From a bacterium (GTDB taxonomy: Bacteria; JAJVIF01; JAGGVT01), in assembly GCA_021157815.1 (NCBI GenBank), contig JAGGVT010000048.1:1-25016 (forward strand): DNA of 25,016 nt, written 5' to 3'. Positions 4-5,741 of the stretch are shown in pieces (the first letter of the stretch is position 1; each line of letters begins with the position of its first letter). Under the pieces are notes generated by a model. That model was given only the letters and a program-made list of their open reading frames with translations, did not search any database and was not told where the DNA came from. A program made the translations under genes and the position numbers.

Positions 4-39
4 TAACTATCCTATATGCGATAGCATATGGGATAGTTA
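4..39. repeat. Strong inverted repeat, 16-bp stem with 4-base loop
   Basis: The arms at 4-19 and 24-39 pair over 16 positions with a single G-T wobble, leaving the loop GATA at 20-23. It lies upstream of the AT-rich cassette. No T-run follows, so it is not a classic intrinsic terminator. It could be an operator, the end of a mobile element or an RNA hairpin; the sequence does not decide between these. Confidence 0.7.
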
Positions 40-236: not shown

Positions 237-260
237 ATGTCTCAAATTGACAAATTCTAA
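237..260 (+). CDS. Seven-codon leader mini-ORF (MSQIDKF)
   Basis: ATG at 237 follows the GGGAGGT site and reads MSQIDKF before TAA at 258-260. The stop shares its last A with the ATG of the next gene (TAATG). The downstream gene has an in-frame stop at 248-250 and no Shine-Dalgarno sequence, so ribosomes ending here are the simplest source of its initiation. This geometry is typical of translational coupling and could set a low, controlled level of the regulator. That it is actually translated is inference. Confidence 0.4.
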   Translation: MSQIDKF

Positions 261-1147
261 TGACTATCTATCGCATAAATAGTAACCACCATGGGTTTGA
301 GCAGTTAATTGGTCTTCATCATCAATTAATATCAACATCAGATTCAACATTCGAACTTGATCTAAGTAAGACTCAATGGTTCGATGCAAATATGTGTGCT
401 GTCTTAGGCGCTGTTCTTGTCTTCGCCCAAAAGAAAAAGCGATTGAAGATTTCTATTAATCGAACTATTCAAAAAGGTGTCGAAGATATTATGCAAAAGA
501 ATGGGTTTCTGTGTCATTATGGATGGGACGAAGAACCAGATATTTATGATACGGTTTTTAAATTTGAGTGCTTTGAATCGAACGAGACTGGCAGGTTCTC
601 AGAATATATTGAGAAGTATTTTGTTAAAGGTGGTAGAGGTTTACCAAAAATGTCTTCTCAACTACTCGGTAGATTCCGAGTGAGCATCTATGAGATTTTT
701 GAAAATGCTAGAGAACATGCGGATAGCAAGCATGGTGTTTTTGTTTGTGGGCAATATTTTCCAAAAAATAAAAGGATAGCTTTCTCAATTGTGGATCTGG
801 GTATTGGTTTTCAAAAAAAGATAAGAAATTCTTTAAATCTCAAGTTAAAACCTAATGAAGCGATAGATTGGGCATTAAGTGAATGTAATACAACTCGTGA
901 TCCTTCTGCAGGGAAACCAGGAGGTATCGGATTAAAGCTAATTAGAGAATTCATTGAAAAGAATAATGGACGATTAATTATAGTATCTGACGCAGGTTAC
1001 TGGGAATTAACAGAAAAAGGAAAAATCGAAATGCGGCAGTTTGAATTCCCATTTCCTGGCACTGCTGTAACATTTGAAATTGATACTTCTGACACTAAAG
1101 AGTATTATCTTGAAGGTGAAGATCCTGATATTGATAGTATATTCTAG
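260..1147 (+). CDS. STAS-like + GHKL (HATPase_c) ATP-binding regulatory protein
   Basis: The 295-residue protein has two parts. Residues ~1-100 resemble a STAS domain: beta strand FELDLSKTQWFDA, then helix LGAVLVFAQKK, then strand LKISIN. Residues ~130-275 are a GHKL ATPase: N-box EIFENAREH (145-153) with Mg-binding Asn149, G1 box DLGIG (179-183) and G2 box GGIGL (221-225). There is no histidine phosphoacceptor domain, no membrane segment and no signal peptide, so it looks like a cytosolic switch kinase or anti-sigma-type ATPase rather than a sensor kinase. It is the first long gene of a tight cluster with a STAS-like protein, a plausible binding partner or substrate, and a PIN protein. Composition is AT-rich compared with genes after 2.3 kb. 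The domain call is firm; the role is inference. Confidence 0.8.
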   Translation: MTIYRINSNHHGFEQLIGLHHQLISTSDSTFELDLSKTQWFDANMCAVLGAVLVFAQKKKRLKISINRTIQKGVEDIMQKNGFLCHYGWDEEPDIYDTVFKFECFESNETGRFSEYIEKYFVKGGRGLPKMSSQLLGRFRVSIYEIFENAREHADSKHGVFVCGQYFPKNKRIAFSIVDLGIGFQKKIRNSLNLKLKPNEAIDWALSECNTTRDPSAGKPGGIGLKLIREFIEKNNGRLIIVSDAGYWELTEKGKIEMRQFEFPFPGTAVTFEIDTSDTKEYYLEGEDPDIDSIF

Positions 1148-1167
1148 CATTACTTAGGGAGATAAAA

Positions 1168-1536
1168 ATGGAAAAGACTAAAAAAGTGATAAAGATCAAG
1201 GATATTGTTGGAAGCAATTTGTGTATCTCATCTCACGATGGGGAAAGAGTATATCTTGAGATTGCCAAGGCACTAAGAAAGGGTTTTTGCATAAAACTGT
1301 CTTTTGAAGATATTGAGGATCTGACTTCCGCCTTTTTAAACTCAGCAGTCGGACGATTATATAACCACGAATTTGAATATGAAACTATCAGTGAAAACCT
1401 AACACCTGAAAATATTTCGCCGGATAAATTACGTCTTTTAAAACGTGTTGTTGACAGGGCCAAAGAGTTTTTCGAAGAACCCGATCGATTTGACAATGCT
1501 GTTCAAGAAGTATTGGGGAGTAATGAGAATGACTAG
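1168..1536 (+). CDS. Small STAS-like (DUF4325-type) protein
   Basis: The 122-residue protein starts 20 bases after the previous stop behind a good site (AGGGAG, 1156-1161). It shows the DUF4325 pattern: strand CIKLSFEDIEDL, then TSAFLNSAVGRLY (residues ~42-66), equivalent to the STAS phospho-site loop and helix, with Thr and Ser candidates there. The C-terminal third is helical and charged. DUF4325 proteins are described as STAS-like and often neighbour GHKL ATPases. A partner-switch role, binding to or phosphorylation by the upstream ATPase, is inference. Its 3' end overlaps the PIN gene by 8 bases, so the two are probably made together in a set ratio. Confidence 0.75.
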   Translation: MEKTKKVIKIKDIVGSNLCISSHDGERVYLEIAKALRKGFCIKLSFEDIEDLTSAFLNSAVGRLYNHEFEYETISENLTPENISPDKLRLLKRVVDRAKEFFEEPDRFDNAVQEVLGSNEND

Positions 1537-2071
1537 AGCGATGGATATCAGGTCTTATTCTTTTCACTCAGATGATAAGTTATTCTTAGACACAAATATT
1601 CTCCTTTATGTTTATGGTCCATTCTCAGGTAAAATCCAACCAAGAGTAGAAAAATATTCACTTGAAATGAGTAGGATAAGAGCTGGTCGATGCGCTACAT
1701 TTGTTGATGTTTTAGTTATCTCAGAGTTCATCAATAGGTTTTCACGACATGAGTGGGAAAGAATGCCATGTAAAGAAAGAGTTTCCTTTAAGGATTTTAG
1801 AGGAACAACGCTCTTTAAACCTGTTGCAGAAGAAATTGCGGATAATATTAGATCTATTTTGGGATTCTGTAATCGTATAGGTTCAGAATTTGATAAAATT
1901 GACATCAACTCCAGCATGAGCCATTTTGAACAGGGTAATTCTGACTTCAATGATGAGATAATAGCTGAAATTTGCAAAAGGAACAGCTTAATACTGATTA
2001 CAGATGATTCAGATTTCAAGGATTATGATATTCAAATACTCACAGCTAATCGTAAACTTTTAGCAGATTAA
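1529..2071 (+). CDS. PIN-domain protein (predicted Mg-dependent ribonuclease)
   Basis: ATG at 1529 is chosen because GGGGAG at 1515-1520 sits 8 bases upstream; this gives 180 residues. The PIN acidic set is visible: LFLDTNILLY at the N-terminus, VISEFINRF mid-protein, DFNDEIIAE, and LITDDSDFKDYDI near the C-terminus, matching the usual D-E-D-D arrangement. PIN proteins are commonly single-strand RNases and toxin components of VapBC-type systems. This one is longer than a typical VapC (~130 residues), with an insert between the Glu and the third acidic residue. It lacks the usual small upstream DNA-binding VapB; its neighbours are a STAS-like protein and a DUF2283 protein instead. Nuclease activity is inferred from retained residues. 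Confidence 0.8.
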   Translation: MTRAMDIRSYSFHSDDKLFLDTNILLYVYGPFSGKIQPRVEKYSLEMSRIRAGRCATFVDVLVISEFINRFSRHEWERMPCKERVSFKDFRGTTLFKPVAEEIADNIRSILGFCNRIGSEFDKIDINSSMSHFEQGNSDFNDEIIAEICKRNSLILITDDSDFKDYDIQILTANRKLLAD

Positions 2072-2072
2072 C

Positions 2073-2279
2073 ATGAAAATTATCTATGATAGAGAAACAG
2101 ACACGCTCTCACTGATTTTAAGTGAAGATCAGGTTGTGGAAAGCGATGAATTAAGAGAAGAAGTGATTATTGATTACAACACCAATGGCCAGGTTGTGGT
2201 GGTTGAGATACTTGACGCTTCTAAAAACCTTGAAGACCCAACAGCTATCTTATACGAGTTAAAAGAAAAAACAGCGTAG
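2073..2279 (+). CDS. DUF2283-family small protein
   Basis: The 68-residue protein opens with MKIIYDRETDTLSLILSE and contains EEVIIDYNTNGQVVVVEILDAS, the DUF2283 pattern. Its ATG lies one base after the PIN stop with no separate Shine-Dalgarno sequence, so translation is probably coupled. DUF2283 proteins are small, of unknown function, and often found beside toxin-antitoxin genes. It could be an antitoxin-like partner of the PIN protein, but nothing in the sequence proves that. Confidence 0.75.
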   Translation: MKIIYDRETDTLSLILSEDQVVESDELREEVIIDYNTNGQVVVVEILDASKNLEDPTAILYELKEKTA

Positions 2280-2292
2280 TATCAGCGATGCA

Positions 2293-3006
2293 ATGGCTGG
2301 AAATATCAAAAAAGCTAACCCCCCAAACGAATCCGCACTGAAAAAACGCGTTAAATCGCTTATTAAAAATCTCGATGAATTCTATCCTGTGTTCAAACCG
2401 AAAAAACGCTATGACCCGCTTGATGAACTTGTACTGACAATCCTCTCGCAGAACACAAACGACAATAATTCATTCGAAGGTTATAAAAGGCTTAAAAGCA
2501 GGTTCCCGACGTGGGATAAAGTAGCACGGGCGAATCCCAACACAATTGAGAAAGCGATCAGTATCGCGGGACTTGCTCCGACCAAGACTAAATATATCAA
2601 GGGTGTTCTGGATGGCATCGGCGCGGATAATCAAGCGAAAAATCGATTAGAAAAAGGTTCGCCATATCATCTGAATCATCTAAAAGAAATGACCCTTGAG
2701 AAATCTTTGGATTACCTGACATCGTTCAAAGGTGTCGGGCAGAAAACCGCCGCTTGTGTACTGGCATTTTCTCTGGATATGCCGTCCTTTCCAATCGATA
2801 CACATGTGCGTCGGATTCTTGTCAGGCACGGGATAATTCCCGCGAATATGACCGCTGAAAATGCGCATCATGTGATGTACCGTCTTACAATTCCTGATGA
2901 GCGTTATCGATTCCACATGAGTTTGATTCGATATGGCCGCGACATTTGCCACGCCCGTAATCCTGAATGTGACAAATGCGTGATTAAGCGAAATTGCGAA
3001 TATTGA
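2293..3006 (+). CDS. nth: Endonuclease III, DNA glycosylase/AP lyase
   Basis: The 237-residue protein excises oxidised pyrimidines and cleaves AP sites in base-excision repair. The helix-hairpin-helix (TSFKGVGQKTAACVL, ~143-157) carries catalytic Lys151, and PIDTHVRRI supplies catalytic Asp169. Four cysteines at 219, 226, 229 and 235 (spacing C-X6-C-X2-C-X5-C) form the 4Fe-4S cluster. The motif LSQNTND replaces the LSAQATD of the E. coli enzyme, a known variation. The N-terminus has a basic extension of about 15 residues. GC content rises from here onward relative to the upstream cassette, which suggests this is native chromosome. The start has no strong ribosome site and sits 13 bases after the DUF2283 stop. 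Confidence 0.92.
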   Translation: MAGNIKKANPPNESALKKRVKSLIKNLDEFYPVFKPKKRYDPLDELVLTILSQNTNDNNSFEGYKRLKSRFPTWDKVARANPNTIEKAISIAGLAPTKTKYIKGVLDGIGADNQAKNRLEKGSPYHLNHLKEMTLEKSLDYLTSFKGVGQKTAACVLAFSLDMPSFPIDTHVRRILVRHGIIPANMTAENAHHVMYRLTIPDERYRFHMSLIRYGRDICHARNPECDKCVIKRNCEY

Positions 3007-3031
3007 ATAACCTCTAACCAACAATATATGG

Positions 3032-3037
3032 TATAAT
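3032..3037 (+). promoter_or_regulatory. Possible -10 box (TATAAT)
   Basis: A perfect TATAAT lies in the 65-base gap before the methyltransferase gene, about 34 bases ahead of its ATG. No good -35 is present at 16-18 bases; TTGAAT at 3003-3008 is too far (23 bases). The match may be chance in an AT-rich gap. Confidence 0.35.
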
Positions 3038-3071
3038 AAATGCGATTTATTTTACGTTTTATTCCAAAACC

Positions 3072-5741
3072 ATGGGTAATTCACTCGAAACAAATGCCCT
3101 GAATCTCTGTGCATCCATCGCGCACGGATTCGCTTCCCATCCGTCAAATAAAATCGATCTCGATAACACTGATAATCTGCATCAGACATCGCTCAGAACG
3201 CTTTTTATAATCCTCTTGTCGCTGTACCTTGAGGAAAATGGATTCCTCCCCGATGATACTGATTTCCGCAATGACACCGGAATATTCACTCTTCGCAAGG
3301 AACTGGCAAATAATCCGCGTAAATCAGGCGGGAAAAAGCTCAGCATTATCAAGCGTATTCGACACTTGATGGAACAGATTTATTCCCCTGATTTGGCGTA
3401 CGCTCCATTCAAAGCGAGGCTGTTTGACCCTGATAACCCTGCCAACCGGAATATTGCAAAGTGGAAATTTTATGATGGCGAGATAACGAATTCACTGAAA
3501 CAGATTTTCTCTATCTGGGCGCATCCGGGGACAAGCTTGATGTCATCCAATCCGCCCGGCATTTCAGAATTGATTGGCATATATACGTTTCTGCTCGATT
3601 ACACACCGCGCGTTACAGATTACGATGTTGTCCTTTTGAACAACGGAAAGCGAATAATCGCGCTCTCAGAGGCTCATCCCGGGGATATCCGTCGGGGACA
3701 CGTGCATGAAAAGGGCAGCGTTATTTATGAATATGCCAAACGAAAATCGCGTAAAAGCGGAACTGTCTATACACCCGATGAAATAGTGAATCGAATTGTA
3801 AAGCGAACTCTTGATCCGCTAATCGGCAGCACCGATAGAAAAAGACCCTTGAGAATTATCGATCCATCCTGCGGAACAGGTCGTTTTCTTTCCGGTGCGG
3901 TCGATTATCTGATTGGGCATAATAACAGGGCAAACGGCGTTAACGCTCGAAATGCCGAGAATGAAAGACAGATAATTTCTGACTCGATTTACGGTGTCGA
4001 TCACGATAAACTCGCCATTGAACTTGCGGAAATCCCGCTAATGCTCAGAACGCACAGCCGCGACAATCCGGCGCCTAATCTTGAAGCAAATATCATCGCG
4101 GCTGATACATTAAAAGGCATCGACTCGCATTTTATTCGCCGATTGATTCTAGGCAATGGGCGGATAGATGACAGCGATGCCGACGAATCGCAGTACACGT
4201 TTGATGAAATCGACTGGCAGTCTGTTTGGAAAACCGTAATTGCCCAGAACAAAAAAGGCGCTCTTGCCGCGCAGTTCGAGATTTTTATTGATTACCTGAG
4301 CGGTAATAACGAAAACTTCAAAACAGTGTCTGATGAGTTTCACAATAAACTGCGTAAACTAACCAGCGGTGATAATAAACCTGTCGAATCGAAAGGCTGC
4401 GGTTTTCATCCTGAGGTATTTTTTCCATCGCTTTATTTCACAACCGCGGGAGAGATGCTTTCCGATAGCGGTTTCGATGCTGTAATCGGCAATCCTCCCT
4501 ATGGCGACATTCTCGATACGGCATCCAAGAGGCTTCTGGAAAACCTCGGATATAAATCAGGCGGCGGAGGCAACAACGACATCTTTCGTTTCTTTGTTGA
4601 ACGCGGATTAAACCTGCTTCGGCGGGGCGGAATGCTCGGATTCATCCTGCCAAATACGTTCCTGAAAGGGCGTAAATATCGAAACTTCAGAAAGAGAATT
4701 CTTGAACTTAGTTATCCTGAGGAGATTCTCGATTTCAATCATCAAAAAGTATTCCAGCGTGATGTCTTTACATCGCTTTTGTTTTTACGGAAAAAACCCG
4801 CAAAAAAATCACAACCGCGATTTCTAACAAGCCTTGATGGTTCACTCGATTATCTTGAACAGGAAGCGTTTGACCCATCGGGAAACGTCGATGATTCCTG
4901 GCTTCCAACGGGTGAACTATACCAGCGGCTCAATTCTGACAAGCGTTACATGCGCATTGACCCGTTTTTCACGCAAATCGGCGATGTCGGAATCAACTAT
5001 CAGCGACGGTCTGTCGGGTGGAGCGAAAGAACCAAAAGCCGTATCGCTGATGTTATTTTCTATGAGGGCAAAAAAGAGCATCCTGACGACAAGGAGTTTC
5101 TCAAGGGAGAGGATGTCGAACGGTTCAGGATTAATCCCAAATCAAAACGATGGCTCAGGCATGACTGGCAAGCGCATATTCAGGACAGCGAAGTTGTAAA
5201 TGTTAATTATGAATGGGCGAATCGGCCTGTCAAAATACTTTCGCGCCAGACAGGAGATTCACTAATCGCCGCGATTGACACAAGCTGCATGCTGACCGGA
5301 CGTTCGCTGCATACATCAGTGGTACGCGACATCGCCTACTCACCTTACTACATTATCGCCCTCATGAATTCCGATGTTTTAACCAGGGTTTACAGGGAAT
5401 TGACTCGTGAAACAGGCCGTCCGCAGGCGCAGGTTAAGCTCTCATTCCTCAGGAAAATCCCGATACGGCGAATCAACTTCACCTTGAATGAAAGCGAACG
5501 TGAGAAGATGTTGAACAAATCGATTAAGAGCATTAACGAAAATCCGGACAACCTTCCCAATGCTGTTAAGGATTCGCTTGAACATCACACTGAGGATATA
5601 GCTCACGATTTGATAGCTTGCTCATCCCGGCGGATAGAGCATCTGCTGGGGTCAAACGGCTCGAATGGAACATCCACTGATTTGGAAAAGTGGCGTAACG
5701 CTCTGAATATATCTATTGATATGCTGTATGAGATAAACTGA
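3072..5741 (+). CDS. Eco57I-like adenine-N6 DNA methyltransferase, nuclease domain not seen
   Basis: 889 residues. Motif I (AdoMet binding) is DPSCGTG at 264-270 and motif IV (catalysis) is NPPY at 474-477, marking an N6-adenine methyltransferase. RKSGTVYTPDEIV (227-239) is the usual lead-in of Eco57I/type IIG enzymes. The C-terminal part (~600-889) resembles the TaqI-type target-recognition region, e.g. FLKGEDVERF and TGRPQAQVKLSFLRKIPI. Type IIG enzymes usually begin with a PD-(D/E)XK nuclease; here the protein starts almost directly with the helical linker-like segment LRTLFIILLSLYLEENGFLP (42-61), and I see no D...E-X-K motif before it. It may be an orphan methyltransferase, a trimmed type IIG enzyme or a BREX PglX-like protein; no other BREX genes are here. 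The start lacks a clear ribosome site. Confidence 0.82.
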   Translation: MGNSLETNALNLCASIAHGFASHPSNKIDLDNTDNLHQTSLRTLFIILLSLYLEENGFLPDDTDFRNDTGIFTLRKELANNPRKSGGKKLSIIKRIRHLMEQIYSPDLAYAPFKARLFDPDNPANRNIAKWKFYDGEITNSLKQIFSIWAHPGTSLMSSNPPGISELIGIYTFLLDYTPRVTDYDVVLLNNGKRIIALSEAHPGDIRRGHVHEKGSVIYEYAKRKSRKSGTVYTPDEIVNRIVKRTLDPLIGSTDRKRPLRIIDPSCGTGRFLSGAVDYLIGHNNRANGVNARNAENERQIISDSIYGVDHDKLAIELAEIPLMLRTHSRDNPAPNLEANIIAADTLKGIDSHFIRRLILGNGRIDDSDADESQYTFDEIDWQSVWKTVIAQNKKGALAAQFEIFIDYLSGNNENFKTVSDEFHNKLRKLTSGDNKPVESKGCGFHPEVFFPSLYFTTAGEMLSDSGFDAVIGNPPYGDILDTASKRLLENLGYKSGGGGNNDIFRFFVERGLNLLRRGGMLGFILPNTFLKGRKYRNFRKRILELSYPEEILDFNHQKVFQRDVFTSLLFLRKKPAKKSQPRFLTSLDGSLDYLEQEAFDPSGNVDDSWLPTGELYQRLNSDKRYMRIDPFFTQIGDVGINYQRRSVGWSERTKSRIADVIFYEGKKEHPDDKEFLKGEDVERFRINPKSKRWLRHDWQAHIQDSEVVNVNYEWANRPVKILSRQTGDSLIAAIDTSCMLTGRSLHTSVVRDIAYSPYYIIALMNSDVLTRVYRELTRETGRPQAQVKLSFLRKIPIRRINFTLNESEREKMLNKSIKSINENPDNLPNAVKDSLEHHTEDIAHDLIACSSRRIEHLLGSNGSNGTSTDLEKWRNALNISIDMLYEIN

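What the first reader, a model, noticed from the sequence alone, without database searches (positions are those of the whole stretch)
237..2279. STAS-GHKL ATPase / STAS-like / PIN / DUF2283 cassette: candidate undescribed regulatory or defence system
Four genes are packed with overlaps or tiny gaps: a STAS+GHKL ATPase, a DUF4325-type STAS-like protein, a PIN protein with intact acidic residues, and a DUF2283 protein. Known: GHKL and STAS proteins form partner switches, and PIN proteins are often toxins. Inference: an ATP-dependent switch may hold or release an RNase. The cassette is AT-rich; sampled 60-base lines give 19 (301-360), 24 (901-960) and 20 (1921-1980) G+C, versus 28 (2701-2760) and 34 (4021-4080) in later genes, fitting acquisition.
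Basis: partly seen in the sequence, partly recalled or inferred. Interest (0 to 1): 0.75.

Follow-up and report, generated by a model that had tools for sequence, protein, structure and literature searches.

The report
VapKSC toxin switch in acquired island
This is a three-gene bacterial self-poisoning switch (a kinase, an antitoxin and an RNA-cutting toxin) of a kind described in 2026 as an anti-phage system; here it sits in a poorly known lineage, and relatives lie in archaea, in prophages and inside DNA-restriction operons.

Summary
The four genes are real. The first three form a conserved operon: a STAS+GHKL kinase (260-1147), a DUF4325 STAS-like protein (1168-1536) and a PIN nuclease (1529-2071). 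This is VapKSC, described in June 2026 (PMC13373217): ssDNA-activated VapK phosphorylates the antitoxin VapS and frees the toxin VapC. My VapS and VapC profiles hit the solved Escherichia VapS and VapC (PDB 9z7o) as their only significant PDB matches. The VapS phospho-serine aligns with window S54 and the VapC catalytic Asp with D21. VapK models as a SpoIIAB-like kinase. The triad, in this order, recurs in 91 of 99 loci by strict count. The cassette is AT-rich (35% G+C against at least 42% elsewhere), so acquisition is plausible. Beyond the paper's text: VapKSC in archaeal assemblies and prophages, and embedded between mod and res of type III R-M operons (17 loci with mod upstream, about 10 with both). 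A matched control supports R-M linkage: 12/22 loci against 1/20 control regions hold an amino-methyltransferase motif ORF.

The parts
260..1147 (+). vapK: STAS (about residues 1-97) + GHKL kinase domain (98-281), 295 aa
   Evidence: HATPase_c; RsbS profile match of the N-terminus; AF2 pLDDT 93, GHKL part best matched to SpoIIAB, Z 10.1, rmsd 2.9 over 129 residues; N box E145/N149/H153, G1 box D179xG181, G2 box G222xG224 invariant or nearly so in 67-69 homologues
377..379 (+). vapK codon W40: candidate equivalent of VapK F54 / CapK W68 (ssDNA-stacking aromatic)
   Evidence: Aromatic (W 75, F 10, Y 2) in 87 of 87 homologues covering the position; F54/W68 role from PMC13373217. Equivalence inferred, since the Escherichia VapK sequence could not be aligned
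1168..1536 (+). vapS: STAS-like (DUF4325) antitoxin, 122 aa
   Evidence: PF14213 E 8.5e-15; profile hits Escherichia VapS 9z7o_A E 5.4e-21; AF2 pLDDT 85, RsbV Z 7.4, SpoIIAA Z 6.3
1327..1329 (+). vapS codon S54: phospho-acceptor, equivalent to Escherichia VapS S48
   Evidence: Profile alignment to 9z7o_A puts S54 on S48 (numbering assumes an 18-residue tag offset, 134-aa chain for a 116-aa protein); S/T in 99 of 99 loci and in loci found by other probes; first residue of helix 54-60 in the model
1529..2071 (+). vapC: PIN-domain nuclease toxin, 180 aa; active-site set D21, E66, D139, D142, D160, D162
   Evidence: PF01850 E 3.3e-7; only PDB hit is Escherichia VapC 9z7o_C, E 2.1e-13, with D21 on D28; each acidic residue kept in at least 88 of 91 homologues
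2073..2279 (+). DUF2283 gene, 1 nt after vapC, in the same AT-rich block but not part of the conserved module
   Evidence: PF10049 E 6.3e-16; no homologue in any of the other related loci
2293..3006 (+). HhH-GPD (endonuclease III-like) glycosylase; neighbour, 13 nt downstream
   Evidence: PF00730 E 1.4e-13; 43.8% G+C
3072..5741 (+). Eco57I/TaqI_C-type DNA methyltransferase (type II/IIG-like); neighbour, 65 nt downstream
   Evidence: PF07669 E 2.2e-31, TaqI_C E 2.3e-15; PADLOC REase_MTase_IIG E 7.5e-32

Best explanation
The locus is a VapKSC module. VapC (PIN) is an RNase toxin. VapS (STAS-like) binds it and puts its C-terminal helix over the active site. VapK (STAS+GHKL) is a SpoIIAB-like kinase, probably switched on by single-stranded DNA, that phosphorylates VapS on S54; VapS then lets go and VapC stops growth, which limits phage spread. 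Shown here: gene order, folds, conserved catalytic and phospho-acceptor residues, homology to the solved Escherichia VapS-VapC complex. Shown in the paper for the Escherichia homologue: toxicity of VapC, neutralisation by VapS, loss of binding with S48E, phage protection that needs D28, S48 and F54. Inferred: that the window's copy is active, that ssDNA is its trigger, and its RNA target.
For: VapS and VapC profiles hit 9z7o chains as the only significant PDB matches, with the key residues aligned; the VapK GHKL part matches SpoIIAB best of the PDB chains compared; the VapS model is STAS-like; the triad is in order in 91 of 99 loci across many bacterial phyla, archaeal assemblies, a Deinococcus plasmid and phages; paper text.
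Against: The window's VapS and VapC are only distantly related to the tested Escherichia proteins, and VapK could not be compared with Escherichia VapK directly. There are no activity data for this lineage. ssDNA activation of VapK is untested biochemically even in the paper (VapK was insoluble).
Confidence: 0.9

Rival explanations
1. A CapKS-type transcription switch: the kinase and the STAS protein regulate neighbouring genes rather than hold a toxin.
For: Same kinase/STAS pair logic (PMC13373217); defence-like neighbours downstream.
Against: VapK here starts directly with STAS and has no HTH; VapS is 122 aa with no wHTH in Pfam or in the model; the profile hits VapS of 9z7o; the PIN gene is almost always the third gene.
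Confidence: 0.04
2. A four-gene system in which DUF2283 is a second antitoxin or regulator.
For: 1-nt gap after vapC and the same low G+C as the cassette.
Against: No DUF2283 in any of the other related loci; a second DUF2283 stretch stands elsewhere in the genome, where no further VapS or VapC relative was found.
Confidence: 0.05
3. A VapKSC-derived remnant that no longer works.
For: Some relatives are visibly decayed: L005 vapC has an in-frame TAG, a second archaeal copy lacks vapK, and one vapS stands alone (L142).
Against: All three window ORFs are intact, with every catalytic and phospho-acceptor residue present.
Confidence: 0.05

Closest known systems
VapKSC, Escherichia sp. E4736 (PMC13373217; PDB 9z7o)
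   Same: Gene order; VapK with STAS+GHKL and no HTH; VapS with S/T phospho-acceptor and a C-terminal helical tail; VapC PIN with its Asp/Glu set
   Different: Low sequence identity (Escherichia VapS carries ASPFFN where the window has TSAFLN); a different host lineage; DUF2283, glycosylase and methyltransferase genes follow
CapK/CapS regulators (PMC13373217)
   Same: STAS+GHKL kinase acting on a STAS protein at an equivalent Ser
   Different: CapK has an HTH and CapS a wHTH and represses transcription; no toxin in the module
SpoIIAB/SpoIIAA and RsbW/RsbV partner switches
   Same: GHKL Ser kinase fold (SpoIIAB Z 10.1) and STAS fold with the Ser at the start of helix 2
   Different: No sigma factor; the partner that is released is a nuclease
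VapBC toxin-antitoxin
   Same: PIN nuclease toxin
   Different: Antitoxin is a STAS protein, not a DNA-binding VapB; release by phosphorylation rather than proteolysis

Membership tests
VapKSC | Three-gene operon vapK-vapS-vapC in this order | tested here: met
   Window 260-2071; same order in 91 of 99 loci
VapKSC | VapK = STAS + GHKL kinase, without HTH | tested here: met
VapKSC | Conserved aromatic in VapK (F54) at the ssDNA site | tested here: inconclusive
   Position W40 is always aromatic in 87 homologues, but no alignment to Escherichia VapK was possible
VapKSC | VapS STAS domain with conserved Ser/Thr (S48) | tested here: met
   S54 aligns with S48 of 9z7o_A; S/T in 99/99 and in loci found with other probes
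VapKSC | VapS C-terminal region that reaches the VapC active site | tested here: inconclusive
   Helix 85-103 and a low-confidence helical tail to residue 117 are present; the contact was not modelled
VapKSC | VapC PIN nuclease with intact acidic site (D28 and partners) | tested here: met
   D21 on D28; E66, D139, D142, D160, D162 present and conserved
VapKSC | VapC toxicity, VapS neutralisation, phospho-release, phage protection | not testable with these tools
   Shown for the Escherichia system only
CapKS | HTH on the kinase and wHTH on the STAS protein | tested here: not met
   No such domains in Pfam or in the models
VapBC | DNA-binding VapB antitoxin next to vapC | tested here: not met
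   Neighbours are DUF4325 and DUF2283

The most novel reading that the evidence does not exclude
VapKSC is often a built-in fail-safe of restriction-modification operons. In a widespread five-gene form it lies between mod and res of a type III system, with the vapK start overlapping the mod stop, so that DNA damage from restriction or from phage attack on the R-M system triggers VapC, as PrrC does for type I EcoPrrI (PrrC analogy from general knowledge). The window's run of vapKSC, DUF2283, glycosylase and Eco57I-like methyltransferase (gaps 1, 13 and 65 nt) would be a looser version.
Probability: 0.35. Interest if true: 0.6.

Novelty: new member of a known kind. Interest (0 to 1): 0.33.

Why it matters
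It identifies an unannotated locus as a recently described immune switch, and shows that the family is broad and mobile: archaeal assemblies, prophages, a plasmid, many phyla. Its embedding in R-M operons gives a testable idea of what sets it off. The PADLOC 2.0 and NCBIfam libraries searched here do not name it, so annotation with those versions would miss it.

Tried and rejected
DUF2283 as a conserved fourth gene: rejected. The VapK start at 237: rejected, another frame with a stop after 7 codons. A genome-wide repeat at the hairpin 5-38: single copy with up to 3 mismatches. Finding Escherichia VapK for a residue map: failed in plasmids, phages, viral contigs and 369 genomes of the Legionella class. 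Foldseek with VapS alone was weak (no E <= 0.001); VIA-align gave STAS proteins among the top rows at middling Z (6-7.6), so the STAS assignment rests mainly on Pfam and the 9z7o profile match. The phylum-level search had only 4 genomes; one of the other three carries the triad, with an interrupted vapC. One pattern of the VapS scan required [ST]AFLN, so conservation of S54 was re-checked in loci found with other probes. Promoter and terminator scans gave no more sites than shuffled sequence would, within about 1.5 sd, and settle nothing about operon limits.

Full report
What is there. The window is the whole 25,016-base contig C133 of a 3.2-Mb draft genome. At its left end four ORFs are packed on the + strand: a STAS+GHKL protein (260-1147), a DUF4325 STAS-like protein (1168-1536), a PIN protein (1529-2071) and a DUF2283 protein (2073-2279). 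Two coordinates change: ATG 237 opens only a 7-codon mini-ORF that ends in TAATG at the real start 260, and the PIN gene most likely starts at 1529. The block is AT-rich, 35.3% G+C, while no 2-kb stretch after about position 2300 falls under 42.5%.

Is it more than chance? Yes. A profile of the STAS-like protein found 265 relatives in one genome per species (80 kept) and 15 in viral contigs. Profiles for the three proteins, run over all ORFs of 99 loci, place kinase, STAS-like and PIN in this order in 91 by strict count. The minus-strand L005 and the ORF-calling artefact L080 also fit; most other exceptions are contig ends. True exceptions are L077 (kinase last) and L100 (kinase apart, no PIN found). 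Conservation falls on functional residues: GHKL N, G1 and G2 boxes; a Ser or Thr at VapS position 54; the PIN acidic residues. Because one scan pattern contained [ST]AFLN, I re-checked position 54 in loci found with the PIN profile (L106, L108) and with Escherichia VapS (L118, L120); all keep Ser or Thr.

What it is. A literature search turned up Chambers et al., EMBO J. 2026 (PMC13373217), who describe VapKSC: VapK (STAS+GHKL), VapS (STAS antitoxin, phospho-site S48, inhibitory C-terminus) and VapC (PIN, D28). They report 289 cases across bacterial groups, 36% within 10 kb of another immune gene, a crystal structure of the VapS-VapC complex, and about 2-log protection against phage Bas42. My profiles hit exactly that structure, 9z7o: VapS E 5.4e-21 and VapC E 2.1e-13, the only significant PDB matches. 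Window S54 lies on S48 and D21 on D28. No other paper in the library uses the name vapKSC.

Structure. VapK models with pLDDT 93; its residues 98-281 match SpoIIAB best (Z 10.1, 2.9 A over 129 residues), above histidine kinases. Its N-terminus matches RsbS by profile. VapS models with pLDDT 85; the best rows include RsbV (Z 7.4) and SpoIIAA (Z 6.3), values that alone would be middling. S54 is the first residue of helix 54-60, at the start of the second STAS helix, where SpoIIAA carries its phospho-serine (established knowledge).

Mechanism. By homology: VapS blocks VapC; VapK, switched on by ssDNA, phosphorylates S54; VapC is released and cuts RNA. For the window's copy this is inference. ssDNA activation is biochemically shown for CapK and only predicted, with a supporting F54A phage result, for VapK. 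Position W40 of the window's VapK is aromatic in all 87 homologues that cover it and is my candidate for F54.

Beyond the paper's text. (1) Archaea: cassettes occur in four archaeal assemblies (L018, L022, L025, L043). In L022 and L025 a 2.4-kb block is 95% identical in different flanks, which suggests movement as a unit. The L022 genome has a second vapS-vapC on another contig, within 2 kb of a Pcc1-family gene, an archaeal-type neighbour. Misbinning of single contigs is not excluded. (2) Phages: cassettes lie directly beside integrases (L093, L096), a superinfection-exclusion gene (L092), an internal virion protein (L003), and on contigs with terminase genes (L087, L088). In L089 the gene just upstream is S24-peptidase-like (just below Pfam's cut-off). 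(3) R-M: in 17 loci a type III Mod-like methyltransferase is upstream, usually overlapping the vapK start by 4 bases, in 12 a Res-like helicase is downstream, and about 10 have both. Others sit near DUF1156/Hma-like, type ISP or type I genes. In a control on the same contigs, 12 of 22 vapKSC regions but 1 of 20 distant regions hold a long ORF with [DNS]PP[YFW] (Fisher p 0.0006); the motif is a proxy, and three of the twelve may not be methyltransferases. Searching the paper's main text for type III, prophage and archaea gave nothing about VapKSC; its datasets could not be read, so these loci may be listed there.

Rarity. Escherichia VapS found relatives in 3 of 369 genomes of the class that includes Legionella, so the module is sporadic, as expected of a mobile defence gene set.

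Verdict. Observation confirmed; interpretation partly supported; a new member of a known kind. The R-M embedding is the part most worth following.

Noticed in passing
L016 2794-9565, L020, L021, L014, L060, L063 and others: vapKSC lies between a type III Mod-like methyltransferase and a Res-like helicase, with the vapK start overlapping the mod stop by 4 bases in most.
   Followed up: partly
L022 4960-7345 and L025 4962-7344: A 2.4-kb vapKSC block is 95% identical between two archaeal assemblies whose flanks differ, as if moved as a unit.
   Followed up: partly
L141 6309-7269: A second vapS-vapC pair without vapK in an archaeal genome, within 2 kb of Pcc1-family, rubrerythrin/EncFtn-like and LigD phosphoesterase genes.
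   Followed up: partly
L005 6311-6772 (minus): The same-class relative has an in-frame TAG in vapC just before the last acidic motif; the frame stays open afterwards.
   Followed up: no
L142 6450-6800 (minus): A vapS-like gene with no vapK or vapC nearby.
   Followed up: no
L089 6368-7120: A phage vapK is preceded by an overlapping S24-peptidase-like (LexA/CI-type) gene, a possible second DNA-damage input.
   Followed up: no
window 5-38: A near-perfect inverted repeat (AACTATCC...GGATAGTT with an inner TATGC/GCATA arm) at the contig edge, single copy in the genome.
   Followed up: partly
window 237-260: A 7-codon mini-ORF behind a Shine-Dalgarno-like GGGAGG, whose stop overlaps the vapK start (TAATG); possible translational coupling. 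Not tested systematically in other loci.
   Followed up: no
window 2293-5741: An endonuclease III-like glycosylase gene stands just before an Eco57I/TaqI_C-type methyltransferase.
   Followed up: no
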